A stretch of DNA of 36,548 bases from Allobosea sp. (GTDB lineage Bacteria; Pseudomonadota; Alphaproteobacteria; Rhizobiales; Beijerinckiaceae): the NCBI RefSeq assembly GCF_030694325.1, contig NZ_JAUXYO010000261.1, positions 1 through 36,548 on the forward strand, given 5' to 3'. Both the position numbers and the translations under genes were made by a program. Of the stretch, positions 14,607 through 26,561 are shown one piece after another. The notes beneath the pieces are model-generated. The model saw only the letters and a program-made list of their open reading frames with translations, searched no databases and had not been told where the DNA came from. The first letter of the stretch is position 1. Every line of letters begins with the position of its first letter.

Positions 14607-17015
14607 TCAGCCTGCCGGCGCGCCGCGCCCCGCCCGTAGCCGCTTCCCGACATCCTGAAACAACCCCCGGAACGGTCGGAAGACGAATCGCACCGTCGAG
14701 CGGCCCGGCGGCACCGCGACGGCGCGGAACAGCACGTTGGCGCGCAGGATCTCGGCTGGGGCGCCGTCGATCTCGACCTCCCACCAGGGGTGCCAGACAT
14801 CGTTCAGCACGACATAGCCGCCCTGGGGCGCCTCGACCCGAAGCGTCACCTCGGTGGTGCCGTAATCGGTGATGCGGACACTGCCGGCCTGGCTCGAGCC
14901 GGCCGGTGTTGCGCCGGCGGGCCGGCCGGTCGCCAGCGGGTCGCGCGGCAAAGGCGGGAGCGGGTGGTCGAGCAGCACGGTCCGGCGCGGGTCGAAGCCG
15001 GCCGGCCACCGGCCGCTCGCGAGAATCGCGTCGAAATCGGCGATCTCAGCCTTCGTCACCAGCAATACGCGCGGGAGCGCGCGCGGGTTCTCGTAGACAT
15101 AGGCGTCTGGCGTGCGGGCGATCAGGGTGAGGTCGCCGGGCTTCAGCGTCTTGTCGATCTGCTCGACGGGAACGCCGGTAGCGATGAAGCGCAGGCCGAG
15201 CATGTCGGCCAGCAGCGAGCCATAGCCCGGCATCAGGGGTGAGAAGGTGCGCTGGTCGGGCAAAGCGACATGGTCGCCCGCGCCGGTCGCCTTGCTGTAG
15301 ATCCCGAGCCGCAGCGGGTTGTAGCCCAGCGTGTTGTCGAGCCGGTGAACGAGGCTGGCATTGGGCCAGTGGAAGCCAATGCCGGCGAGTTCGATGCGGT
15401 CGCGCCGGTCGGGGCCGGCGGTGGCGGCAGTCTCGCTCTTGAGCAGGGCGATGGTTTCGTTGGCGCTGTCGGCCCGCAGCACGTCGTAATCCTGCGCCGG
15501 CAGGGCGGTGGATTCGTTGGGACCATTGTTGACCGAGAGGTCGATGGTCAGCGTCGCCGCCAGCACGATCGCTGCCGCCAGCCGGGCACCGCGCAGCGCA
15601 AAGCCGCGCGCGGCGACGAGTGCCCCGATCGCCAGCACGCCGCAGAGCAGTGCGGTGACCAGCGGAACGGCCGCGACCGGCAGACGCCCGACCGTCCAGG
15701 CGAGCCAGAGCGCGAGCGCGAGCGCGCCCGCGAAGATCGCGACCTCGATGACGCGTTGCCACGGCCGCGCGCGCGGGGCCGTGCCGGTCATGACGAGATG
15801 GGTCAGGTAGCCGCCGAGCAGCGCCAGCAAGGCGCCGAGAATGAAGAGCGCGTCGGCCGGACGACGGTAGAAGGACACGCCCGGCAGTTCGAACAGCAGG
15901 CGGAAGCCCGGCGTGAAGCGCCCGAGCGCGAAGATCAGCACGAGCAGGGCTGCGACGCTCAGCGCCACGATCTCGCGGCGCAGCAGCGCGCCGCGGACGA
16001 CGCCGATGGTCAGGATCAGCCCCATCGGGATCAGCCCGAGATAGAGCTGGCTCATGTTGCGGGCGAGGTAGAGGTCCTGGGGCCCGAAGCGGGCCTCGAA
16101 GGCCGGGCTCGGCGCGCCCCAGAAATTCTCCAGCGGACCGGCCGCGCCATAGAGATTGGCGAAGAGCCCGGTCAGCAGGGCGGCCGGATGCAGCGAGCCC
16201 TTGCCGGCGCCGACGAGGTCGATCGCTGGACGGTTGGAGTCCTCCGCGAGGACGGCGGTGAGCAGGATCGGCACGGTCGCAACGAGCAGGGCCCCGATCG
16301 CGCCCGCGAGCAGAGGGAGCAGGCTCGTCTTCAGCGCCCGCCAGGGTTGGCGCGCCATGGCGATGGCGGCGAGCACGAGCCCCGCCAGGACATAGACGCC
16401 GAGCAGCGCAACCTGGTCGCGTCCGAGTACCATGAAGCCCGCGACGAGGCCGGCGGCAAAGCCGTAGGCCACCGAGCCGCGCTCCAGAGCGCGTGCGATC
16501 AAGGCGAGCGTGATGGCGAAATAGCCGAGGCTGAGAACCTGGCCGATATGCTGGATGCGCCAAGCCGCCGCCGCTCCGAAGGCAAAGGCGAGCGCCGCGA
16601 CGACCGCGCCGGCCGGGTGCCAGTCGCGGTCGCGGAAGATCACGACGAAAGCGAGCGCGCCGGCCAGCAGGGTGCCGAGGACCGCCCCGTCGCCGAGGCG
16701 GAAGCCGGGCACGGGTTCCAACGCCGCGATCAGCGCGAAGGGCGGCGAGAAGATCAGCGATTGCGGATCGGCGATCTGCGGCGAGCCGGCGAAGACGTAA
16801 GGCGTCCAGAAGGGCGAGCGGCCGCTGTGCCAGGCTTCCGCCAGAAACTGGAGCTGGGGCTGGAAATGCGCCTTGGCGTCCCAGGGAATGGTGACGACGC
16901 CCGACAGCCAGGGCCAGGACAGCGCGATCCACGCGAGGAGGACGATCGCAGCGACGCGGGCGAGGGGCCACGGCGTGGACTGGATAGCAGATGGCGGACT
17001 CTGCAGAGGCGACAT
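14607..17015 (-). CDS. YfhO-like polytopic membrane protein (putative GT-C type glycosyltransferase)
   Basis: An 802-residue protein with a short basic N-terminus, about 12-13 hydrophobic segments up to residue about 490 and a C-terminal periplasmic-type domain of about 300 residues. The first loop has VTIPWDAKAHFQPQLQFLAE and SPFWTPYVFAG, the pattern of YfhO/GT-C proteins in which acidic loop residues bind a lipid-phosphate sugar donor. Later come GVSFYRRPADALFILGALL and a C-terminal beta-rich segment with DVWHPWWEVEIDG and VPPGRSTVRFVF. YfhO proteins glycosylate lipoteichoic acid in Gram-positives; the acceptor here is unknown. It is 85 bases downstream of ribA on the same strand, possibly co-transcribed. 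Start ATG 17015 has a weak ribosome binding site. Confidence 0.78.
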   Translation of the reverse strand: MSPLQSPPSAIQSTPWPLARVAAIVLLAWIALSWPWLSGVVTIPWDAKAHFQPQLQFLAEAWHSGRSPFWTPYVFAGSPQIADPQSLIFSPPFALIAALEPVPGFRLGDGAVLGTLLAGALAFVVIFRDRDWHPAGAVVAALAFAFGAAAAWRIQHIGQVLSLGYFAITLALIARALERGSVAYGFAAGLVAGFMVLGRDQVALLGVYVLAGLVLAAIAMARQPWRALKTSLLPLLAGAIGALLVATVPILLTAVLAEDSNRPAIDLVGAGKGSLHPAALLTGLFANLYGAAGPLENFWGAPSPAFEARFGPQDLYLARNMSQLYLGLIPMGLILTIGVVRGALLRREIVALSVAALLVLIFALGRFTPGFRLLFELPGVSFYRRPADALFILGALLALLGGYLTHLVMTGTAPRARPWQRVIEVAIFAGALALALWLAWTVGRLPVAAVPLVTALLCGVLAIGALVAARGFALRGARLAAAIVLAATLTIDLSVNNGPNESTALPAQDYDVLRADSANETIALLKSETAATAGPDRRDRIELAGIGFHWPNASLVHRLDNTLGYNPLRLGIYSKATGAGDHVALPDQRTFSPLMPGYGSLLADMLGLRFIATGVPVEQIDKTLKPGDLTLIARTPDAYVYENPRALPRVLLVTKAEIADFDAILASGRWPAGFDPRRTVLLDHPLPPLPRDPLATGRPAGATPAGSSQAGSVRITDYGTTEVTLRVEAPQGGYVVLNDVWHPWWEVEIDGAPAEILRANVLFRAVAVPPGRSTVRFVFRPFRGLFQDVGKRLRAGRGAPAG

Positions 17016-17100: not shown

Positions 17101-18228
17101 TCAATCCTTCGGCGCCGCCCGCGCCATCAGCGCGTCCATGTCGATCGAGTGGCCGGCCCGGTCTCGCTTGGAGGCAAGGTAGCGGACATTGTGGACATTG
17201 GGACGCCCGAGCACGCGCTGCGTGCCGACGACCTCGACGCCTGCCGCCTTGATCGCGCCGACCTTCAGCGGGTTGTTCGTCAGCGCGGTGACGCGGGTGA
17301 CACCGAGCAGCTTGAGCATCGTCGCGGCGAAGTCGAACTGGCGCTGGTCGAGATCGAAGCCGAGGACCTCGTCGGCGTCATAGGTGTCCCAGCCCTGGCT
17401 CTGGAGCTTGTAGGCGCGCATCTTGTTGGAGATACCGTTGCCGCGGCCCTCCTGGTCGAGATAGAGCAGGATACCGCCCTCGTTCTCGGCCATCCACTGC
17501 ACGGTCTCGCGCAGCTGGTCACCACAATCGCATTTCAGCGAGCCGAACAAATCGCCCGTTAGGCAGGCCGAATGCAGGCGCACCGGGACGGCGGCCGTCA
17601 GATCGGGATTGCCGACGATGATCGCGACCTGGTCACGCAGGCCCTCGCCGCCGCGGAAAACGACAAACTCGGTTTCGGGCGCGCCCTCGAGCGGCACCGG
17701 CGCGCGTCCAACGATCGTCAGCGTCGCGGCCTGGGCGGCGCGATAACCGTTGACCGACTCGATCGCGATCTCGATCAGCGGCTCGCCTGCGATCTGATCC
17801 GGCGTGACGGGGACGATGATCGTCGCGGGCAGCACCAGCGAGAGGCGCGCCAGTTCGAGCGCGGCGTCGTCGAGATCGGAAGCGGGCGCCACCGGCGCAT
17901 CGACCTTGCCGTCAATTTTCAGCGCCAGCATCTCGATGCGACCCAAATCCAGCGTCGGCATGGCGAGGATGCCGGTCTCGACGCGGCTCTTGGCACCCAG
18001 CCGGCGCAGACGCGCCGGGCTGAGGACGAGATGGGCCTTGCCGGCGGCCAGCGCGTCGAGCCGCGTCACCAACTCGGCATCGGCCAGCTCGGCTGAGAGG
18101 CCGAGAGCGAGCCGTTGTCCCGCACGGAGCAGCACCGGACGACCGGCTCGAAATTCGGCAATGGCCCGGTCTACCGCTACGAGGCTCGTCTCGAGCGGGC
18201 GTCCGAACAGCGTACGCGACTGAAGCAT
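17101..18228 (-). CDS. ribA: GTP cyclohydrolase II (RibA) with degenerate DHBP-synthase-like N-terminal domain
   Basis: A 375-residue protein. Residues about 1-165 begin like RibB (VDRAIAEFRAGRPVLL) but lack the acidic DEDREN-type catalytic motif of 3,4-dihydroxy-2-butanone-4-phosphate synthase, so this half is probably inactive. Residues about 170-370 are a complete GTP cyclohydrolase II: zinc Cys residues in SACLTGDLFGSLKCDCGDQ, the substrate region LDQEGRGNGISNKMRAYKLQ, and LTNNPLKVGAIKAAGVEV. It opens GTP to the diaminopyrimidine that starts riboflavin synthesis. No FMN riboswitch was recognised upstream and no other rib gene is nearby, so a role outside riboflavin synthesis, perhaps with the 19.1-22.9 kb operon, is possible. 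Confidence 0.9.
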   Translation of the reverse strand: MLQSRTLFGRPLETSLVAVDRAIAEFRAGRPVLLRAGQRLALGLSAELADAELVTRLDALAAGKAHLVLSPARLRRLGAKSRVETGILAMPTLDLGRIEMLALKIDGKVDAPVAPASDLDDAALELARLSLVLPATIIVPVTPDQIAGEPLIEIAIESVNGYRAAQAATLTIVGRAPVPLEGAPETEFVVFRGGEGLRDQVAIIVGNPDLTAAVPVRLHSACLTGDLFGSLKCDCGDQLRETVQWMAENEGGILLYLDQEGRGNGISNKMRAYKLQSQGWDTYDADEVLGFDLDQRQFDFAATMLKLLGVTRVTALTNNPLKVGAIKAAGVEVVGTQRVLGRPNVHNVRYLASKRDRAGHSIDMDALMARAAPKD

Positions 18229-18509: not shown

Positions 18510-19088
18510 ATGACGCAGGCGAACCGCGAGCCGGGCCCGGCTCCCGTCTACAGCGCCGCCGCGCGTCATCTGCATTGGGTCACCGCCACCGCGGTGCTGG
18601 CGATGATCCCCGCGGGCCTCGCCATGACCTATCGCGGCAACACGCTGAACATCTGGGACGGGCTGACCGACGCGATGTACAGTTCGCACAAGCTGCTCGG
18701 CTTCCTCGTGCTCTGGCTGGTCGCCGGGCGGCTGGCCTACCGCCTGCTCAAGGGCGCGCCGCCCGACGAGCCGACGCTGCTCTGGTGGCAGAAGGCGGGC
18801 TCGCATCTCGTCCACTGGCTGCTCTACGGGCTTCTGCTGATCGTGCCGCTGCTGGGCTGGCTCGGCATCTCGCTCTACCCGTCGCTGACGGTGTTCGGCC
18901 TGTTCAACCTGCCCGCCATCGCCGCGCCCAACCAGGATCTCGCCGGCCAGGTTCTGAACATCCATGGCACGCTTGCCCTCGCGATGGGGCTGCTCGTCTG
19001 CGCCCATATCGGCGCCGCGCTCTACCACCATCTGATCCGCAAGGACGGCGTGCTGCGTCGGATGCTGCCGGGTCTCAGGCAGCGCTAG
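18510..19088 (+). CDS. Cytochrome b561
   Basis: A 192-residue di-heme membrane protein of the bacterial b561 family. Four hydrophobic helices lie at about 25-43, 59-78, 94-118 and 148-172. Candidate heme ligands are in RHLHWVTA (helix 1), SSHKLLGF (helix 2), GSHLVHWLLYG (helix 3) and NIHGTLAL with AHIGAALYHHLI (helix 4). Such proteins move electrons between the quinone pool and periplasmic acceptors; bacterial members include superoxide:quinone oxidoreductase CybB. ATG 18510 has GGAGG seven bases upstream. It is transcribed divergently from ribA and converges on the methyltransferase gene, with only 8 bases between the stops. Confidence 0.88.
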   Translation: MTQANREPGPAPVYSAAARHLHWVTATAVLAMIPAGLAMTYRGNTLNIWDGLTDAMYSSHKLLGFLVLWLVAGRLAYRLLKGAPPDEPTLLWWQKAGSHLVHWLLYGLLLIVPLLGWLGISLYPSLTVFGLFNLPAIAAPNQDLAGQVLNIHGTLALAMGLLVCAHIGAALYHHLIRKDGVLRRMLPGLRQR

Positions 19089-19096
19089 CGCCCTTC

Positions 19097-19936
19097 TCAG
19101 ACAGGGCGCGCCCAGAGGTCGTGATGCCCGACGAGCGCCGTGGCCTCGGGTGTCTTGGCCGCCAGCCAATCGGCGACGGTGGCGGGATCGACCTGGCCGG
19201 TCTCCAGAACGGCGTCGGCGATGCCCTTGGCCAGCACCTGCGCCAGATTGCCGCTTCGCGCATCGACGCGCCAGGCGCTGTCGCCGATCGAAACCGCAAA
19301 GCCCGATTTCCGGAAGGCCTCCGCCATCACGTCCGTGGCCTCGGGGCCGGCTGCCGGTCCGAAGCCCTTGTCGCCGCGCTGATGGTGCTTGAATGCGGCC
19401 AGCATCCGCGCATCGGCGAGGTGGGGCGGCTGCCAGATCTCACGGCCGTCATAGGTCAGCACCGTGTAGAGCGGCAGGTTCAGGCTGGTCAGGCCGGCGA
19501 CGAAGCGTTCGAGCCAGCGCCGGGAGGTGAGGTCGAACAGCGCCGCGGCGGTGACGAGATCCGGCTGCCAGCCGAGGACCCATTCGAGATCGGTGTTGAG
19601 ATCGGCCTGGCGGGTGTCGACGGTGATCAGGTGGTCGCCCTTGGTCAAGACGAGTTCCTCGCCCTGCTCGCGGGCTTCGTCGGCCCAGCCAGAGAGCGTC
19701 TCGCGGGTGGCGGCGAGCAGACGCTGGTCGAGATCGACCAGCGTCCAGTGCTGGCGCGCGGGCAGGGCGGCATAGCTGCCGCGCAGGTTGGAGCCGGCGC
19801 CGCAGCCGAGATCGACGACCGTCAGCGAACTTCGGCCGGCGAAATGCGCGCCTACGGCGGCCAGAACCTGCGGATTGCGGGCGGCATGATCGGCCGGCTC
19901 GCGCAGGCCCAGCCATTCGGGAGAAAATCCGGCCAT
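19097..19936 (-). CDS. SAM-dependent class I methyltransferase, last gene of the pterin-like operon
   Basis: A 279-residue protein with SAM motif I VVDLGCGAGSNLRGSY (about 40-55), an acidic strand-2 end in WTLVDLDQRLL and a DLVTAAALFDLTS motif near residue 130. Start ATG 19936 shares its A with the upstream glycosyltransferase stop (TGATG), so translation is coupled; a longer frame from 19969 was rejected. The substrate is unknown. Position suggests it methylates the product of the upstream glycosyltransferase or its acceptor. The motif set is a generic small-molecule methyltransferase type, with no sign of an rRNA or protein methyltransferase. Confidence 0.82.
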   Translation of the reverse strand: MAGFSPEWLGLREPADHAARNPQVLAAVGAHFAGRSSLTVVDLGCGAGSNLRGSYAALPARQHWTLVDLDQRLLAATRETLSGWADEAREQGEELVLTKGDHLITVDTRQADLNTDLEWVLGWQPDLVTAAALFDLTSRRWLERFVAGLTSLNLPLYTVLTYDGREIWQPPHLADARMLAAFKHHQRGDKGFGPAAGPEATDVMAEAFRKSGFAVSIGDSAWRVDARSGNLAQVLAKGIADAVLETGQVDPATVADWLAAKTPEATALVGHHDLWARPV

Positions 19937-21000
19937 CAGCCCCCCTTTTGCCCCCAGCCGGGCAGACATACGCCAGCGACGATCGCCGCCGTGTCGCGCC
20001 AGCGTGGCAGGACCTCGGCGGCGGCCCAGGCCGCATCGGCCATCGCCCGGCGCCGAGCCGGCGCATCAATCAGGCTTGCCATCGCCTTGGCAAGTGCCGC
20101 GGCGTCGCCGGGCGCGACTTTCAGTGCAGCGTCGTCGGGCGCGGTTTCGGCGGCCGCGCCGCCGGTGGTGCAGACGATCGGCAGGCCGCGGGCCAGCGCC
20201 TCGGTCAGGACCATGCCGTAGCCTTCGAAGAGCGAAGGCATCACGAAGAGATCGGCGCTGGCATAAGCCTCGGCGAGCGCCGCATCGCCGATCGCGCCGG
20301 CCAGGCGGATGCGCGCGCTCAACCCCGCGGCCTCGATCTGCGCGACGAGGGCGGCGACCGTGTCGATCGCGCGGTCGGTGGCTCCGACGATGGTGAGGCG
20401 CCAGTCGCGGTCGGAGAGCCCCGCCAGCGCCGTGACCAGGACGTCATAGCCCTTGCGCGGCACGACAGCGCCGACGGCCAGGAGGTGCAGGGGCTCGCCG
20501 GCAGACGAGCCTGAGGCCCGCGGGGCGGCATCGACGCCCGGCGAGGCGACCGTGATACGTTCGGCCGGGACCCCGAAATCGGCGGCGAGAAGCCGCTTCA
20601 TCGCCGGGCTGGGCGTCACCACCGCACGGGCATAGCGCAGCGCCGCCGCCTCGCGGGCGAGCAGAGCCCTGGCTGTCTCCGGCGCTAGGCCCGTCTCGAG
20701 CCCGAGCGGGTGATGGACCAACGCGACGACGCGCCCGGCCAGCCCGGCCGCGATGCCTTCCGGAAAGGCGCCGTAGGCGAGGCCGTCGATCAGCAGCGTG
20801 TCGTCATAGGGTCGCTGCAAGAGGGCCCGACCGGTCAGGTGAAGGTCGCCCTCGGTCGGAAAGGGGAACGAGCCAGGAAGGGCGATGTGCTCCGCCGGCA
20901 CGCCCATCGCGTGCCATTCCGCCAGCAGCCGCCGGTCATAGGCGTAGCCGCCGGTCGGCAGCTCGATGTCGCCGGGGATGGCGAAGGCGATCCCGCTCAC
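19936..21000 (-). CDS. GT4-family glycosyltransferase
   Basis: A 354-residue retaining glycosyltransferase of GT-B fold. The N-terminal domain starts IAFAIPGDIELPTGGYAYD, with the Gly-rich acceptor-side loop usual in GT4; the C-terminal domain has LLAVGAVVPRKGYDVLV and the EX7E region LFEGYGMVLTEALARG that binds the nucleotide sugar. It is soluble, without membrane helices. The start is GTG 21000, overlapping the stop of the preceding pterin-synthase-like gene (GTGA), and its stop overlaps the next gene. In this operon it could glycosylate a small molecule, as pterin glycosyltransferases do in cyanobacteria, or act on a polysaccharide; the first is favoured only by context. Confidence 0.87.
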   Translation of the reverse strand: MSGIAFAIPGDIELPTGGYAYDRRLLAEWHAMGVPAEHIALPGSFPFPTEGDLHLTGRALLQRPYDDTLLIDGLAYGAFPEGIAAGLAGRVVALVHHPLGLETGLAPETARALLAREAAALRYARAVVTPSPAMKRLLAADFGVPAERITVASPGVDAAPRASGSSAGEPLHLLAVGAVVPRKGYDVLVTALAGLSDRDWRLTIVGATDRAIDTVAALVAQIEAAGLSARIRLAGAIGDAALAEAYASADLFVMPSLFEGYGMVLTEALARGLPIVCTTGGAAAETAPDDAALKVAPGDAAALAKAMASLIDAPARRRAMADAAWAAAEVLPRWRDTAAIVAGVCLPGWGQKGG

Positions 21001-21398
21001 GCGAGCGCGCCCTCGTAGGTGGCGCGGGCGAGGTCGGTCTCGTGCAGGGTGACGCGGATCCGGGAGAGCCCAGCGCCATCCTGCCCGAGGGCGCCGGATT
21101 TCGCCGCTTCTGCCATCGCGTCGAAGATATGCTTGCAGAGGAATTCGGTGGTCGTCAGCACGCCGGAAAATTGCGGCAGCGTGTCGAGGTTTTGGTAGTT
21201 CAGCGGCTTCAGCGTCTTGTTCAGCACATCGAGCGCGGCACCGATATCGACCACGACGTTCTGCTTCGTCAGCGTCTCCCGGAAGAAGGCGACGTCGACC
21301 ACGAAGGTCGCGCCATGCATGTTTTGGGCAGGACCGAAGAAGGAATCGGGCAGGGAATGGCCGATCATGATGCGGTCGCGGACTTCGACGGAAAACAT
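20997..21398 (-). CDS. 6-pyruvoyltetrahydropterin synthase / QueD-fold protein lacking canonical catalytic residues
   Basis: A 133-residue protein with the T-fold pattern of PTPS/QueD: IGHSL for the first zinc His, MHGATFVVDV at the second, NVVVDIGAALDVLN where the family has a G-x-V-x-D-F strand, TTTEFLCKHIF for the substrate helix, and VTLHETDLARATY with the pterin-anchoring Glu. The third zinc His of the usual HGH is Ala, the catalytic Cys four residues before HGH is Ala, and the Asp-His pair of the LDHxxLN region is Asn-Tyr. It therefore probably does not carry out the normal PTPS or QueD reaction. ATG 21398 has GAAGGA six bases upstream; it overlaps the glycosyltransferase start. Confidence 0.83.
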   Translation of the reverse strand: MFSVEVRDRIMIGHSLPDSFFGPAQNMHGATFVVDVAFFRETLTKQNVVVDIGAALDVLNKTLKPLNYQNLDTLPQFSGVLTTTEFLCKHIFDAMAEAAKSGALGQDGAGLSRIRVTLHETDLARATYEGALA

Positions 21399-21429
21399 GG
21401 ATGATCCTTCGTTCTGTTGGGGCTCGTGG

Positions 21430-21882
21430 TCAGGCCGCCCGAGGGCGCTGGCCGAGCGACTGCGAGAAACGCAGCAGGTAGCCGTCCGGGTCCTGAACCA
21501 GAAACTGATGGACGCCGGTCTCTTCGGATTCGCTGATCCGGTACCAGCGTTCCTCGGGGCCGAAAAAGAGCGGCCAGGACGCCTGCTGTAACGACGTCAG
21601 CAGGGCGCTGACGTCACGGACCATAATTTCGAAATTGATGCCACGGCCATAGGGCTTTTCGCGCGGACCCGTGTCCCAGCTGCGCTCGGTCGGTCCGGTC
21701 TCGTATTCCTCCAGCATGAACTCGATGCCCTCGCGCTCGATCGCCGCAAAGCCCTGCTCGGGGCGGTCGTAGAGCACACGGAAGCCCAGCAGGTCGCACC
21801 AGAAGGCGAGGCTCGCGGGCATCGCGGTGATGTAGAGTTCCGGCACCAGGGCAGGGCGCGGATATGTCCGAGGCGGTGTCAT
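21430..21882 (-). CDS. VOC-fold (glyoxalase / bleomycin-resistance-like) protein
   Basis: A 150-residue protein with two beta-alpha-beta-beta-beta repeats of the vicinal oxygen chelate fold. The N-terminal half has LVPELYITAMPASLAFWCDLLGF-type sequence with GFRVLYDRPEQGFAAIE; the C-terminal half has GINFEIMVRDVSALL and HQFLVQDPDGYLLRFSQSL, where the HQF His and the late Arg-Phe replace usual metal-ligand positions. Members include glyoxalases, dioxygenases, epimerases and binding proteins, so activity is not predictable. ATG 21882 overlaps the stop of the MDR gene (ATGA); the next gene starts 31 bases on. It is therefore the second gene of the operon and may act on the pathway intermediate or be a hitch-hiker. 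Confidence 0.8.
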   Translation of the reverse strand: MTPPRTYPRPALVPELYITAMPASLAFWCDLLGFRVLYDRPEQGFAAIEREGIEFMLEEYETGPTERSWDTGPREKPYGRGINFEIMVRDVSALLTSLQQASWPLFFGPEERWYRISESEETGVHQFLVQDPDGYLLRFSQSLGQRPRAA

Positions 21883-22913
21883 GGGCCCGCTTCATAGCAG
21901 ATGGCGGCCGTCAAACCATGCCAGGAGGGATCCAGCACCGCAGGCAGGCGGGCCGGCGCCTTGGCGAATGGGATATCCTCGCTGATCAGGGCGTCGAGTC
22001 TGTCATCGGCGAGCAGCGCCATGGCGGCGGCGGCGCGGCGGGCATAGTCCCAGCGCGGGCGCCGCGACGGGGCGATGCCACCGACCTGGGTGGAGACGAG
22101 CTGCAGCCGGCTGGCGTGGAAGGCGCCGCCGAGCGGGGCCGGCACCGTGCCCTCGCCATACCAGCTCAGCTCGACGATACGGGCCTCGTAACCCGCCGCC
22201 GCGACGGCGGTGGCGAGGCCGGCGGGCGAGGCGCTGGCGTGGAAGACGAGATCGGCCCCCGTTGGTGCCTCCGCCGGCATGGCGAAGCCGAAGCCGAGCC
22301 TCTTTGCCAGGTCGGCGCGGGCCGGCGCGACATCGACCAGCGTGACCTCCGCTCCGGGCAGGCGCGCGGCGAGCCAGGCCACGAGCAGGCCAAGAACGCC
22401 GCCGCCGACCACGACGATGCGGTCGGCCGGGCCCGAGCCGGCATCCCAATGGGCGTTCAGTGCGGTCTCCATATTGGCGGCGAGGATGGCGCGGCGGGCC
22501 GGCACCTGCGGCGGGACCGGCGTCAGTCGGTCGGCCGGCGCGACGAAGCGGTCCTGATGCGGATGCAGGCAGAAGACGGTCTGGCCGAGCCTGTCGGCGG
22601 GGCCCGCCTGCACCACGCCGACGGCGCAGTAGCCGTATTTCACGGGAAATGGAAAATCGCCCCGCTGGAAGGGCGCCCGCATGCGCTCATACTCGCCCTC
22701 GGGGACGCGACCTTCGCAGACGAGGCGCTCGGTTCCGCGGCTGATGCCGCTCCACACCGTACGGACGAGGCAGTCGCCCTCGGAGAGCGGCGGCAGCGCC
22801 TCGGCGTTCAGGGCGCATTCACGCGGGCTCACATACCAGAGGGCCGTCGCCTGGGCGCTTGCACTGGACGGAAATGCCGGCTTTAGCTCCCCGGCCTTGT
22901 CGTTCGGCGCCAT
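21879..22913 (-). CDS. MDR-superfamily dehydrogenase-like protein without the usual catalytic zinc ligands
   Basis: A 344-residue medium-chain dehydrogenase/reductase. The N-terminal GroES-like domain has TVWSGISRGTERLV where catalytic-zinc enzymes have GVCHSD, and VKYGYCAVGVV where they have GHE, so the Cys and His-Glu ligands are missing. The Rossmann domain has IVVVGGGVLGLLVAWLAA and VTLVDVAPARADLA for NAD(P). The SGISxGTE pattern recalls BchC-type dehydrogenases. ATG 22913 was chosen for the GGGGAGG seven bases upstream; the open frame to 23435 overlaps opgH and is rejected. First gene of a five-gene unit, divergent from opgH with only about 52-67 bases between starts. Confidence 0.82.
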   Translation of the reverse strand: MAPNDKAGELKPAFPSSASAQATALWYVSPRECALNAEALPPLSEGDCLVRTVWSGISRGTERLVCEGRVPEGEYERMRAPFQRGDFPFPVKYGYCAVGVVQAGPADRLGQTVFCLHPHQDRFVAPADRLTPVPPQVPARRAILAANMETALNAHWDAGSGPADRIVVVGGGVLGLLVAWLAARLPGAEVTLVDVAPARADLAKRLGFGFAMPAEAPTGADLVFHASASPAGLATAVAAAGYEARIVELSWYGEGTVPAPLGGAFHASRLQLVSTQVGGIAPSRRPRWDYARRAAAAMALLADDRLDALISEDIPFAKAPARLPAVLDPSWHGLTAAICYEAGP

Positions 22914-22980
22914 GTCCCTGCCTCCCCGCCCGCTCTGCCCCACCCGCCTCGCCTCGATCGACCGCATGACAGAGACAGCC

Positions 22981-24816
22981 ATGAACGAGCGTCCCGCTCC
23001 GACCACGTTCCAGCCGGCGACGCAAGGTCTCACCATCCCGCCTCTACCGCTGCCATTGGCCGGCACCACGCCGGCCGGGCTGCAGGACAAGGCGATGCTG
23101 TCGCGCCGGCGCTGGCTCGTGCTGTGCCTCAACCTTGCGACGCTGGCGGCGCTGCTCTCGGGGCTGGCGCACGTCCTCGGCGCCGGCGGCTGGAGCTGGG
23201 CCGACCGCGCCATCTTCGTCGCTTTCCTGTTCGGCGCACCCTGGACGGTGCTCGGCTTCTGGAACGCCGTGCTCGGCTTCTGGCTGCTGCATGGCGTCAA
23301 GGACGGGCTCGAGCGGGTCGCGCCTTTCGCGGCCGCCGGCGATCTGCCGACACCGATCAACATTCGCACAGCCGTCCTGATGACGCTGCGCAACGAGGAC
23401 CCGGCGCGTGCCTTCGCGCGGCTGCACGTGGTCAAGCAGAGCCTGAACGCGACCGGCGAGGGCGGCTGGTACGATTATTTCGTGCTCTCCGACACCAATG
23501 ATCCCGATGTCGCCGCCGCCGAGGAAAGACTAGCCGCCGCCTGGCAGGCCGAGGCGGGCGAGGATTGCCGCATCATCTATCGCCGCCGCAGCGACAACAC
23601 CGGCTTCAAGGCCGGCAATGTCCGCGACTTCTGCGAGCGTTGGGGCGCCGATTACGAGCTCATGTTGCCGCTCGATGCCGACAGCGTAATGGCGGGCGAG
23701 GCGATCGTGAAGCTGACGCGGATGATGCAGACCTATCCGAAGCTCGGCATCCTGCAGAGCCTCGTCGTGGGCATGCCCAGCCAGTCGGCGTTCGCGCGCA
23801 TCTTCCAGTTCGGCATGCGGCAAGGCATGCGGCCCTACACGATGGGCTCCGCGTGGTGGATCGGCGATTGCGGGCCGTTCTGGGGTCACAATGCGCTGGT
23901 GCGCATCGCGCCTTTCCGCGATGGCTGCCATCTGCCGGTGCTGTCCGGGGGCGCGCCGCTGGGCGGCGCCGTGATGAGCCATGATCAGGTCGAGGCGACG
24001 CTGATGCGCCGCGCCGGCTACGAGGTCCGCGTGCTGCCGGTCGAGGGTGGCAGCTGGGAGGAAAACCCGCCCACCATGCTCGATTTCGCCAAGCGCGACC
24101 TGCGCTGGTGCCTCGGCAATCTGCAATATCTCAAGCTGATGGACATTCCGGGTCTACAGCCGATGAGCCGTTTCCAGCTGTTCTGGGCGATCCTGATGTT
24201 CCTGGGCCTGCCCGCCTGGACGCTGATGATCGCGCTGTTGCCTCTGAAGGTCGTCGAGGATCGCTGGCTCACGGATTATCCCGCCGGCCTCGCCGCCGGG
24301 CTCTATCTGCTGTTCCTGGGAATGTATCTCTCTCCCAAGCTCGCGGGCTTCGCGGACATCCTGCTGACTTCGGGCGGCGCCCGCAGCTATGGCGGACGGC
24401 TGCGCTTCGTGGCGTCGGCGGCGATCGAGGTGGTCTTCGCCTTCCTGCAGGGCGCGGTGTCGAGCTTCCGCACGACCCTGTTCATGATCGGGCTGCTGTT
24501 TGGCCGCTCGCGCATCGGCTGGGGCGGGCAGGCGCGCGACGCGCATGCGCTCTCGCTGGCGACGGCGTTCGCCGGGCTGTGGCCGCATCTCCTCTTCGCG
24601 GTCTATCTGTTCGGCACGCTGGCGGTGATCTCGCCTGCGGTGCTCCTCTGGTCGCTGCCGCTGACGGCGGGCTACCTGCTCGCCGTGCCCTTCGCGATGG
24701 CGACGGCGCTGCCCGCGCTCGGCGCCTGGTTCGCGCGGAAGGGGCTTTGCGGCATCCCGGAGGATTTCGACCCGCCGCCCGTGCTGCAGGCGATCCGTAC
24801 CGAGGCCCGCTCGTGA
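22981..24816 (+). CDS. opgH: Periplasmic glucan biosynthesis glucosyltransferase OpgH (MdoH)
   Basis: A 611-residue inner-membrane GT2 enzyme. Two N-terminal helices (about 40-62 and 72-103) precede the cytoplasmic catalytic domain, with MTLRNEDPARAF, the DADS metal site (about 230), the SHDQVEATLMRRAGYEVRVLP acceptor-site block and a KRDLRWCLGNLQY motif (about 370) equivalent to QxxRW. About five or six helices follow (about 398-590). OpgH polymerises beta-1,2-linked glucose from UDP-glucose and exports it to the periplasm. It is shorter than enteric OpgH. ATG 22966, five codons upstream, is an alternative start; neither has a good Shine-Dalgarno. No opgG follows; an overlapping FkbM gene does. 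Confidence 0.92.
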   Translation: MNERPAPTTFQPATQGLTIPPLPLPLAGTTPAGLQDKAMLSRRRWLVLCLNLATLAALLSGLAHVLGAGGWSWADRAIFVAFLFGAPWTVLGFWNAVLGFWLLHGVKDGLERVAPFAAAGDLPTPINIRTAVLMTLRNEDPARAFARLHVVKQSLNATGEGGWYDYFVLSDTNDPDVAAAEERLAAAWQAEAGEDCRIIYRRRSDNTGFKAGNVRDFCERWGADYELMLPLDADSVMAGEAIVKLTRMMQTYPKLGILQSLVVGMPSQSAFARIFQFGMRQGMRPYTMGSAWWIGDCGPFWGHNALVRIAPFRDGCHLPVLSGGAPLGGAVMSHDQVEATLMRRAGYEVRVLPVEGGSWEENPPTMLDFAKRDLRWCLGNLQYLKLMDIPGLQPMSRFQLFWAILMFLGLPAWTLMIALLPLKVVEDRWLTDYPAGLAAGLYLLFLGMYLSPKLAGFADILLTSGGARSYGGRLRFVASAAIEVVFAFLQGAVSSFRTTLFMIGLLFGRSRIGWGGQARDAHALSLATAFAGLWPHLLFAVYLFGTLAVISPAVLLWSLPLTAGYLLAVPFAMATALPALGAWFARKGLCGIPEDFDPPPVLQAIRTEARS

Positions 24817-25571
24817 AAGCGGCTCTCCACGCCCCCGGCACGGCGCGTGCCATCGGCCGGTCGCTGCGCGTCTATCACGGCGACAAGTCCCGCCACGGGG
24901 CGATGGATGCACTCTATGGTCGCTTCCTCAAGCCGGGTGATCTCGCCTTCGATATCGGGGCGCATGTCGGCGACCGGATCTCATGCTTTCGCCGGCTGGG
25001 TGCCCGCGTGGTCGCTCTGGAGCCGCAGCCAGGGCCGGCGCGCGCCTTGCGGCTGATCCATGGGCGCGATCCGCAGGTTACGCTGGTCGAGGCCGCCTGC
25101 GGCGATGCCGAGGGCGTCGTGCGGCTGCGCATCAACAGCGCCAACCCGACCGTCTCGACCGCGTCGGACGCCTTCGTCGGGGCGGCAAGGGGGGCGGAAG
25201 GCTGGCAGGAGCAGATCTGGGACCGCGAGGTCGAGGTCCGCAGCACCACGCTCGACGCGCTGATCGCCCGGTACGGCCTGCCCACCCTGCTCAAGATCGA
25301 CGTCGAGGGCTTCGAGGCGCATGTGCTGGCGGGGCTGACGCGACCCGTCCCGGTGATCTCCTTCGAGTTCACCACGATCCAGCGCGACGTCGCCGAGGCC
25401 TGCCTTGCCCTGCTGGAGACGCTCGGTCCCTACCGCTTCAACGTCGCGCTCGGCGAAACCCAGCAGTTCGAACTGGGCGCGTTCGCGAGCGCGGAGGCGA
25501 TGGGCTGTTATCTGCGGGATCTTCCCCATTCCGCCAATTCGGGCGATGTCTACGCCATCCTTCCGCACTGA
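24813..25571 (+). CDS. FkbM-family SAM methyltransferase
   Basis: A 252-residue protein with the FkbM pattern: LAFDIGAHVGDRISCFRRLGA (SAM motif I, about 45-65), VVALEPQPGPARAL for the acidic ribose-binding residue, the central TTLDALIARYG helix and LLKIDVEGFEAHVLAGL (about 165-181), which is diagnostic. FkbM enzymes O-methylate sugars, polyketides and other hydroxyl groups. The start is GTG 24813, sharing GTGA with the opgH stop, so the two are translationally coupled. That coupling suggests it methylates the periplasmic glucan or a precursor, which is inference. Confidence 0.87.
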   Translation: MKAALHAPGTARAIGRSLRVYHGDKSRHGAMDALYGRFLKPGDLAFDIGAHVGDRISCFRRLGARVVALEPQPGPARALRLIHGRDPQVTLVEAACGDAEGVVRLRINSANPTVSTASDAFVGAARGAEGWQEQIWDREVEVRSTTLDALIARYGLPTLLKIDVEGFEAHVLAGLTRPVPVISFEFTTIQRDVAEACLALLETLGPYRFNVALGETQQFELGAFASAEAMGCYLRDLPHSANSGDVYAILPH

Positions 25572-25583
25572 GACCCAATCACG

Positions 25584-26561
25584 ATGCGCGCTAACCGCCT
25601 CCGCCTCGCCTTTTTCGCCCTGGCCCTTTCGGTCGCCCCCGCTTTCGCGGCGAGCGATGTGACGGTGGAGGTCAAGAACGAGTCGGAGCCGGTGCTCTGT
25701 GCCGAGAAGGACAATGTCACCATCAAGGCGATCTCGCCCGAGGTGCGCCGCTTCCAGATCGAGGCCGCGCATCCGGCCTATATCGCCGGGCTGATGCGCG
25801 ACAACTGGGATGCGGACTGGACGGCCTGCGACATGGCCGGCGATCCCGTCTTCGCTGCGGTGACGCCGCCGCGCCGCGTGACCTTCTATGAGAGCATCGA
25901 ATACTGGCTCGTCGGCTACACCTTCCCGACTTTCTGGCGACCTTCCGAGACCACCTTCAAGGTCGGCGACCGCGTCGAGAAGGGGCTGCACCTCGTCCAG
26001 CTCTGGAAGCTCGGCAAGGATCGCTCGCACGAACTGCTCGTGGTCTATCCTCAGGACGGCTACTGGCGCGCCCGGCCGATGCCGCCTGCGCCGCTGGCCG
26101 CGACGGCCTATGGCTCATCCTTCCTGGTCGGGCCGATCGTGCAGGATGGCGCGCGGCCCGTCGTGAACATCCGCGAGATCGAGTTCGATCCCAAAACGGT
26201 CTCGTTCAAGATGAGCTTCAAGGACGGTTCCTCCGGCACGCTGAGGCTGGACAATGTCGACGAGAACCGAATGGTGCTCGACGTCGTGCTCGACCGTCCG
26301 GTCGGCGGCGGCAATGCCTTCGTCGCCCTGCGCTCGATGTATGTCACCGAGTTCAACAACGACGTCGCCCGCATCGCTATCCGCGAGCCCGGTGCCAAGG
26401 GCTGGCGCGAGGAGCCGCTGATGCCTTTCGCCGGCGGCAAGGCGACCGATATCTGGATGGGCCGCACCACCCATTCACGCCACAACACCTCCTCGCCCGA
26501 CATGGTGTTTCGGAATTTCTCGCGGGATCCGAACCCGCCCGCCCGTGCCGAAAAGAAGTAG
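25584..26561 (+). CDS. Secreted protein of unknown function in the opgH operon
   Basis: A 325-residue protein with a clear Sec signal peptide: basic MRANRLR, hydrophobic LAFFALALSVAPAFA, cleavage probably after AFA at residue 22. The mature protein is soluble and beta-rich with many aromatic residues: FYESIEYWLVGYTFPTFW, HELLVVYPQDGYWRARP, IEFDPKTVSFKMSF, and a His/Ser-rich end RTTHSRHNTSS. I recognise no family. It begins 12 bases after the FkbM stop, so it is probably the third gene of the opgH unit, and its size and periplasmic address would suit a glucan-handling protein in a locus lacking opgG. There is no visible sequence similarity to OpgG. Confidence 0.75.
   Translation: MRANRLRLAFFALALSVAPAFAASDVTVEVKNESEPVLCAEKDNVTIKAISPEVRRFQIEAAHPAYIAGLMRDNWDADWTACDMAGDPVFAAVTPPRRVTFYESIEYWLVGYTFPTFWRPSETTFKVGDRVEKGLHLVQLWKLGKDRSHELLVVYPQDGYWRARPMPPAPLAATAYGSSFLVGPIVQDGARPVVNIREIEFDPKTVSFKMSFKDGSSGTLRLDNVDENRMVLDVVLDRPVGGGNAFVALRSMYVTEFNNDVARIAIREPGAKGWREEPLMPFAGGKATDIWMGRTTHSRHNTSSPDMVFRNFSRDPNPPARAEKK

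What the first reader, a model, noticed from the sequence alone, without database searches (positions are those of the whole stretch)
19097..22913. Five-gene coupled operon for an unknown, probably pterin-like, small molecule
Five minus-strand genes are packed with three start-stop overlaps (MDR/VOC, PTPS-like/GT4, GT4/methyltransferase) and one 31-base gap. They encode a zinc-less MDR dehydrogenase, a VOC protein, a PTPS-fold protein, a GT4 glycosyltransferase and a methyltransferase: oxidation/reduction, heterocycle handling, glycosylation and methylation of one small molecule. Glycosylated pterins are known from cyanobacteria and green sulfur bacteria, but I know of no characterised alphaproteobacterial pathway with this set. 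A two-domain GTP cyclohydrolase II lies 0.9 kb further on. The product is inferred, not shown.
Basis: partly seen in the sequence, partly recalled or inferred. Interest (0 to 1): 0.75.

Follow-up and report, generated by a model that had tools for sequence, protein, structure and literature searches.

The report
Conserved operon for unknown GTP-derived metabolite
This is one copy of a widespread, conserved but apparently uncharacterised bacterial gene set that seems to turn GTP into an unknown sugar-bearing, methylated, pterin-like molecule, using a protein that looks like a pterin enzyme but has lost its catalytic residues.

Summary
The five genes and their tight packing are real. Four of them (MDR dehydrogenase, PTPS-fold protein, GT4, methyltransferase) form a conserved operon in alpha-, beta-, gammaproteobacteria and actinobacteria; the VOC gene is an accessory. 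The PTPS-fold protein is not a standard QueD or PTPS: the catalytic Cys and third zinc His are Ala in 129 of 129 loci, while the pterin-anchoring Glu is invariant. Its nearest solved relative is Streptomyces SCO6650 (3D7J, 191 against 29 bits). A GTP cyclohydrolase II, as in this window, and a deaminase-free RibD-type reductase, absent from this genome, belong to the system: the reductase occurs in 30 of 39 PTPS-like-positive and 1 of 111 negative genomes. Loci carry MdoH or a CDP-alcohol phosphatidyltransferase, never both (68, 12, 0 of 93).

Best reading: RibA opens GTP, a reductase makes a ribitylamino-pyrimidinone that keeps its 2-amino group, the MDR oxidises it, a pterin-like ring closes, GT4 and MT decorate it, and it goes to the envelope. 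The gene association is well supported; reactions, product and role are inferred. I found no published product in open papers.

The parts
21879..22913 (-). Zinc-less medium-chain dehydrogenase (polyol/alcohol dehydrogenase fold), first gene of the core operon
   Evidence: in 91 of 93 loci with full flanks
21430..21882 (-). VOC (glyoxalase/dioxygenase superfamily) protein; accessory
   Evidence: Pfam PF00903 29 bits; in 2 of 37 order relatives and 1 of 80 named loci
20997..21398 (-). PTPS-fold protein of the SCO6650 type; catalytic Cys and third zinc His lost, pterin-anchor Glu kept
19936..21000 (-). GT4 glycosyltransferase
   Evidence: PF00534 105 bits; in 87 of 93 loci; best solved matches Tll1590 and MshA-type enzymes
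19097..19969 (-). class I SAM methyltransferase; likely true start at 19936
   Evidence: in 92 of 93 loci
17101..18228 (-). two-domain GTP cyclohydrolase II (RibA, NF006456), proposed first step
   Evidence: three zinc Cys and Tyr273 at the GCH II switch position
18510..19088 (+). cytochrome b561; frequent neighbour, link uncertain
   Evidence: in 54 of 118 loci
22966..24816 (+). glucan glucosyltransferase MdoH, divergent from the operon (start by inspection)
   Evidence: NF003963 920 bits, cut-off 884; in 68 of 93 loci
24813..25571 (+). FkbM-type methyltransferase behind MdoH (GTG start chosen by inspection); link uncertain
   Evidence: PF05050 54.7 bits, cut-off 22.7; relatives in 32 of 118 loci, where my ORF choice missed the window copy
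25584..26561 (+). predicted secreted beta-rich protein, unknown family; link uncertain
   Evidence: 34 of 118 loci; no Pfam or NCBIfam match; no fold match at E 0.001
14607..17015 (-). 802-aa membrane-like protein after RibA (membrane nature by eye); link uncertain
   Evidence: 16 of 118 loci; no Pfam match

Best explanation
The operon, with RibA and (in relatives) a stand-alone RibD-type reductase, makes one GTP-derived, pterin-like, glycosylated and methylated small molecule that ends up at the cell envelope. Proposed route: (1) RibA opens GTP to 2,5-diamino-6-ribosylamino-pyrimidinone 5'-phosphate. (2) A reductase without deaminase makes the ribitylamino form, so the 2-amino group stays; in this genome only the bifunctional RibD was found that could do it. 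(3) The zinc-less, polyol-type MDR oxidises a ribityl hydroxyl. If that is the 2'-OH, the ketone lies where GTP cyclohydrolase I's rearrangement puts it, and the 5-amino group can close on it to a dihydropterin. (4) The PTPS-fold protein holds the 2-amino-4-oxo ring by its conserved Glu and guides closure or later chemistry without the usual zinc site or catalytic Cys. (5) GT4 and MT decorate it. (6) MdoH (with a glucan ABC exporter in betaproteobacterial-type loci), or in other loci a CDP-alcohol phosphatidyltransferase, often with a flippase-like protein, extends, anchors or exports it. Shown by sequence and comparative evidence: the conserved gene set, the residue losses, and the association with RibA and the reductase. 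Step 1 follows from RibA's family membership. Inferred: the later reactions, the product, its location and its role.
For: Conserved order and tight spacing (median gaps 12, -4 and -34 bases). Reductase (more than 160 bits) in 31 of 150 genomes, 30 of them among the 39 PTPS-like-positive ones, Fisher p 2e-22; RibA (more than 200 bits) in 26 of 150, 22 of them positive, p 3e-12. In G065 the reductase-RibA pair lies far from the PTPS gene on the same contig yet co-occurs. The reductase profile's best solved matches are archaeal-type 2,5-diamino-6-ribosylaminopyrimidinone-phosphate reductases (6p8c 150, 2azn 139 bits) ahead of RibD (115 bits or less), and the three relatives scanned show RibD_C alone while this genome's RibD shows deaminase plus RibD_C. 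RibA-type proteins near the operon keep the three zinc Cys in 55 of 55 and the switch Tyr in 52; in the one with Met, Streptomyces L154, a creatininase-family gene is adjacent, and an enzyme annotated as creatininase was shown to deformylate AFRPP to DARoPP in S. meliloti (PMC9478397, passages). Glu85 and Glu120 invariant in 129 of 129. MDR fold matches include L-idonate, xylitol and sorbitol dehydrogenases among many other alcohol dehydrogenases. MdoH and CDP-alcohol transferase do not occur together; MdoH, an ABC transporter (a glucan exporter in the two scanned) and the MT share strand and order in five betaproteobacterial-type loci.
Against: This genome has no stand-alone reductase, and 4 of 39 positive genomes have neither that reductase nor a RibA above my cut-off. 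Four PTPS-like-negative genomes have such a RibA. The reductase stays below the archaeal equivalog cut-off. Two of the 11 plasmid loci read, both Streptomyces, carry the PTPS-like gene without MDR, GT4 or MT nearby. GT4 is missing near 6 of 93 loci, MDR near 2 and MT near 1. Four loci with Tyr-type RibA also hold a creatininase-family gene, so the Met/creatininase link rests on one locus, whose creatininase scores below every NCBIfam cut-off. The CDP-alcohol transferase is at the divergent upstream place in only 5 of the 12 loci. Fisher values ignore shared ancestry. No metabolite data exist here, and the 2'-OH oxidation and ring closure are chemistry by analogy only.
Confidence: 0.55

Rival explanations
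1. The operon builds an envelope glycan or glycolipid; the PTPS-fold protein is a scaffold or sensor, and RibA and the reductase are incidental neighbours.
For: GT4, MdoH, FkbM, a glucan exporter, CDP-alcohol transferase, flippase-like and sulfatase-like proteins surround it in one locus or another.
Against: The stand-alone reductase is almost confined to PTPS-like-positive genomes even where unlinked; invariant Glu residues of the pterin site.
Confidence: 0.2
2. A deaminated, flavin- or lumazine-like side product is made: an extra riboflavin-type branch.
For: RibA and a RibD-type reductase start the known riboflavin route.
Against: The three reductases scanned have no deaminase domain (the family's median ORF is 272 aa), and the profile scores best with archaeal-type reductases that act before deamination. 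I did not search the loci for lumazine or riboflavin synthase.
Confidence: 0.12
3. The PTPS-fold protein is this organism's QueD (queuosine), as automatic annotation of relatives says.
For: It is the only PF01242 protein found in this genome, which does have QueC and FolE.
Against: Catalytic Cys and third zinc His lost; 34 bits against a QueD cut-off of 89; 10 of 39 positive genomes also hold a second family member of 98 bits or more, presumed canonical; no other queuosine gene is annotated in the 11 plasmid regions read; QueC here sits beside a Vut_1 gene (preQ0 transporter family, recalled).
Confidence: 0.04

Closest known systems
SCO6650 of Streptomyces coelicolor (PDB 3D7J)
   Same: Same protein subfamily (191 bits over residues 1-131) with the same HGA and LNY replacements. 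A Streptomyces fungicidicus plasmid locus has the same MDR-PTPS-GT4-MT order plus RibA and creatininase-family genes. Recalled, not read: Spoonamore 2008 reported no zinc, no catalytic triad, no PTPS activity, but a pterin-type pocket.
   Different: Against the S. fungicidicus locus (the S. coelicolor locus was not fetched): the window has MdoH instead of CDP-alcohol transferase, a two-domain RibA with Tyr instead of Met, a VOC gene and no creatininase-family match.
QueD / PTPS (COG0720)
   Same: Fold family, two of three zinc His, TTE motif, anchor Glu (roles of these residues recalled).
   Different: Third zinc His and catalytic Cys are Ala in 129 of 129; the LDH His is Tyr in 126 and Phe in 3.
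Archaeal/fungal-order riboflavin start (cyclohydrolase, formamidase, reductase before deamination; order recalled)
   Same: RibA, creatininase-family gene or stand-alone reductase in relatives.
   Different: Bacterial GCH II, accompanied by MDR, PTPS fold, GT4 and MT; this genome also carries an ordinary bifunctional RibD.
Glycosylated pterins of cyanobacteria and green sulfur bacteria (recalled)
   Same: A glycosyltransferase acting on a pterin is the idea in common.
   Different: Those start from GTP cyclohydrolase I and true PTPS (recalled); here the linked cyclohydrolase is type II and the PTPS-fold protein lacks the catalytic residues. No sequence comparison with those glycosyltransferases was made.
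Osmoregulated or cyclic glucan machinery (MdoH, NdvA/ChvA)
   Same: MdoH equivalog in the window; glucan exporter equivalog in two betaproteobacterial-type loci.
   Different: Sits beside a GTP-derived pathway and is replaced in other loci by a CDP-alcohol transferase.

Membership tests
PTPS/QueD enzymes | PTPS fold family (PF01242) | tested here: met
   76.2 bits, cut-off 22.4
PTPS/QueD enzymes | three zinc-binding His | tested here: not met
   H14 and H28 kept, third is Ala30 in 129 of 129
PTPS/QueD enzymes | catalytic Cys and LDH His | tested here: not met
   Ala24 in 129 of 129; Tyr68 in 126 and Phe in 3
PTPS/QueD enzymes | pterin-anchoring Glu | tested here: met
   Glu120 in 129 of 129; its role is recalled from PTPS structures
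PTPS/QueD enzymes | QueD equivalog score | tested here: not met
   34 bits, cut-off 89.25
SCO6650 subfamily | high-scoring full-length profile match with the same residue losses | tested here: met
   191 bits, next best 29
SCO6650 subfamily | shared function | not testable with these tools
   function of SCO6650 unknown (recalled; PDB name is 'Uncharacterized protein')
GTP cyclohydrolase II | equivalog score, zinc Cys and Tyr at the switch position | tested here: met
   497 bits, cut-off 464; Cys222, 233, 235 and Tyr273
Archaeal 2,5-diamino-6-ribosylaminopyrimidinone-phosphate reductase | TIGR01508 equivalog score | tested here: not met
   98 and 101 bits, cut-off 186, for two relatives; may work like one, not a member; absent from this genome
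Zinc alcohol/polyol dehydrogenases | catalytic zinc ligands (GHE motif) | tested here: not met
   xYGY in place of GHE, xYGY in 90 of 92 MDR ORFs (the letters GHE occur somewhere in 2 of 92, place not checked); fold matches
MdoH glucan glucosyltransferase | equivalog score | tested here: met
   NF003963 920 bits, cut-off 884
Glycosylated-pterin pathway | pterin glycoside product | not testable with these tools
   needs metabolomics

The most novel reading that the evidence does not exclude
A cyclohydrolase-I-independent route to a pterin: GTP cyclohydrolase II, a deaminase-free reductase and a polyol-type dehydrogenase together produce the 2'-keto intermediate that cyclohydrolase I makes by rearrangement, a PTPS-fold protein without the usual zinc site closes the ring, and the glycosylated, methylated pterin becomes part of an envelope glycan (MdoH type) or a phospholipid headgroup (CDP-alcohol transferase type).
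Probability: 0.13. Interest if true: 0.88.

Novelty: new variant of a known kind. Interest (0 to 1): 0.62.

Why it matters
A conserved GTP-derived pathway with a likely start, an inactive-looking pterin enzyme of solved structure and two alternative membrane modules would be a new class of bacterial metabolite, and would give a use to a protein structure that, as far as I know, has lacked one. The first four proposed steps can be tested with purified enzymes.

Tried and rejected
QueD/queuosine role: rejected on residues, score and coexistence with a second, presumed canonical member, though this genome has QueC and no other QueD was found. Five-gene unit with VOC: rejected, VOC is rare. A general rule 'Met-type RibA goes with creatininase': only one Met locus, and four Tyr loci also hold a creatininase-family gene, so not claimed. 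The first MdoH counts (71 of 80; 90 of 93) were inflated by antisense matches from over-long ORFs; recounted with trimmed queries (68 of 93). The first switch-residue reading by pattern was replaced by an alignment. The fold of the secreted protein gave no match at E 0.001. Paper searches (open-licence full texts only) listed no paper that I recognised as being on this cluster's product; one search listed one paper that holds the name SCO6655 (PMC2853524), which I did not open; of the papers listed, only passages of PMC5041015 and PMC9478397 were seen.

Biases: the 80 named loci were picked by two peptide patterns that include H14 or A24 and H28, so those positions are partly circular there (Ala30, Tyr68, Glu85 and Glu120 are not in the patterns); 49 of the 129 loci (window, 37 order relatives, 11 plasmid regions of 20 hits) were found without patterns and agree: H14, A24, H28, A30, E85, E120 in 49 of 49, Tyr68 in 47 and Phe in 2. 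The 160- and 200-bit cut-offs were set after seeing the lists, and the genome tallies were taken by hand. Gene clusters rest on mechanical ORF choice, which misses real genes (for example the window's own FkbM gene).


Full report
What is there. Two neighbouring pairs overlap by 4 bases, one gap is 31 bases, and the methyltransferase probably starts at 19936, on the last base of the GT4 stop. RibA lies 868 bases beyond, with a cytochrome b561 gene on the other strand in between; a divergent MdoH gene starts about 50 bases from the MDR start. The nearest named relatives are Bosea contigs (93% identity in the PTPS-fold protein).

Conservation. Of 150 genomes of the order, own genome included, 39 have the PTPS-fold protein. 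I fetched 37 of the 38 others (G083, a partial hit, was left out). All 37 have MDR-PTPS-GT4 in this order and strand, and 36 have MT next, the other running off its contig. Plasmid records add, among others, Methylosinus, Palleronia, Rhizobiaceae, Thiodictyon, Streptomyces and Microbacterium (11 of 20 regions read). In the 93 of 118 loci with enough flank, MDR is near in 91, MT in 92, GT4 in 87, the stand-alone RibD-type reductase in 56 and RibA in 44. In several Rhodobacteraceae RibA, MDR, PTPS, MT and the reductase are co-directional and adjacent. Exceptions: two of the 11 plasmid loci, both Streptomyces, carry the PTPS-like gene without these partners.

The PTPS-fold protein. A profile of 17 members finds SCO6650 (3D7J) at 191 bits and true PTPS and QueD structures at 29 bits or less. 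The alignments show HGH replaced by HGA, and LDH by LNY or similar. Over 129 loci the Cys position is Ala in all, the third zinc His is Ala in all, the LDH His is Tyr in 126 and Phe in 3; two His, Glu85 and Glu120 are invariant. Eighty of these loci were chosen with patterns that cover some of the positions; the 49 others agree. I recall, and could not read, that SCO6650 was reported to lack zinc, the triad and PTPS activity while keeping a pterin-type pocket. PMC5041015 (12 passages) names COG0720 subfamilies I to IV and roles for I to III; the passages I saw do not describe this one. Ten of the 39 positive genomes also hold a second PF01242 protein of 98 bits or more, presumed canonical; an eleventh has a weaker one.

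The start of the pathway. RibA here has the zinc cysteines and the switch Tyr, so it should make the deformylated product; the role of that residue is recalled from work on S. coelicolor cyclohydrolases. A stand-alone RibD-type reductase is the strongest partner by co-occurrence: 30 of 39 positive and 1 of 111 negative genomes, the exception being only 56% complete. RibA above 200 bits: 22 of 39 and 4 of 111. The reductase's best solved matches are archaeal-type reductases that act before deamination, although it stays below that family's equivalog cut-off; three relatives scanned show no deaminase domain. The 2-amino group should therefore survive, which fits the retained Glu of the pterin site. 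This genome lacks the stand-alone enzyme; its one RibD_C protein is a bifunctional RibD. A creatininase-family gene sits beside the single Met-type RibA (S. fungicidicus), scoring below all NCBIfam cut-offs; an enzyme annotated as creatininase deformylates AFRPP in S. meliloti (PMC9478397, passages).

Later steps. The MDR has the fold of polyol and alcohol dehydrogenases (TM-scores 0.70-0.76 for the five best matches; model pLDDT 87.6) without the zinc motif. Oxidation of the ribityl 2'-OH would give the carbonyl that cyclohydrolase I makes by rearrangement, letting the 5-amino group close a pterin ring. This is my inference from chemistry, with no direct evidence. GT4 matches Tll1590 and MshA-type enzymes best among solved structures. 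The MT has only weak matches of known structure.

The envelope link. MdoH is near in 68 of 93 loci, a CDP-alcohol phosphatidyltransferase in 12, both in none, neither in 13 (Fisher p 1e-8, ancestry not removed). MdoH stands upstream of the MDR on the opposite strand in all 68; the transferase is at that place in 5 of its 12 loci and elsewhere in the others. In five betaproteobacterial-type loci the order on one strand is MdoH, ABC transporter, MT; the two transporters scanned pass the glucan exporter model NF010178. Five of six flippase-like (LPG_synthase_TM) and six of nine sulfatase-superfamily loci also have the transferase cluster, and none of the nine has the MdoH cluster. Hence the proposal that the product is extended, anchored or exported.

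Verdict. An ordinary-looking operon belongs to a widespread, conserved, apparently uncharacterised pathway. The association of the genes is strong, the start from GTP likely, the pterin nature plausible, the envelope destination suggestive, the function unknown.

Noticed in passing
window 25584-26561 (+): Secreted-looking protein family kept behind MdoH in 34 of 118 loci; no Pfam or NCBIfam match; beta-rich model (pLDDT 80.5) without a match at E 0.001 among solved structures.
   Followed up: partly
own genome G000:C318 (L167 6827-8147): QueC beside a Vut_1 (preQ0 transporter family, recalled) gene in a genome where no canonical QueD was found: an open question for its queuosine supply. QueE was not searched for.
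   Followed up: partly
L155 and L159 (Streptomyces plasmids): The PTPS-like gene occurs without MDR, GT4 or MT nearby, near cupin, MBL-fold and MEKHLA proteins: perhaps a second use of the same fold.
   Followed up: no
own genome G000:C119 and C210: Two further GTP cyclohydrolase II-like genes besides the window's RibA.
   Followed up: no
window 20997-21398 and relatives: 14 of 20 plasmid records name this protein 6-carboxytetrahydropterin synthase, several with a queuosine GO term; residue and score tests do not support that name.
   Followed up: yes
window 14607-17015 (-): 802-aa membrane-like protein without Pfam match, near RibA in relatives; its cluster is in 16 of 118 loci.
   Followed up: no
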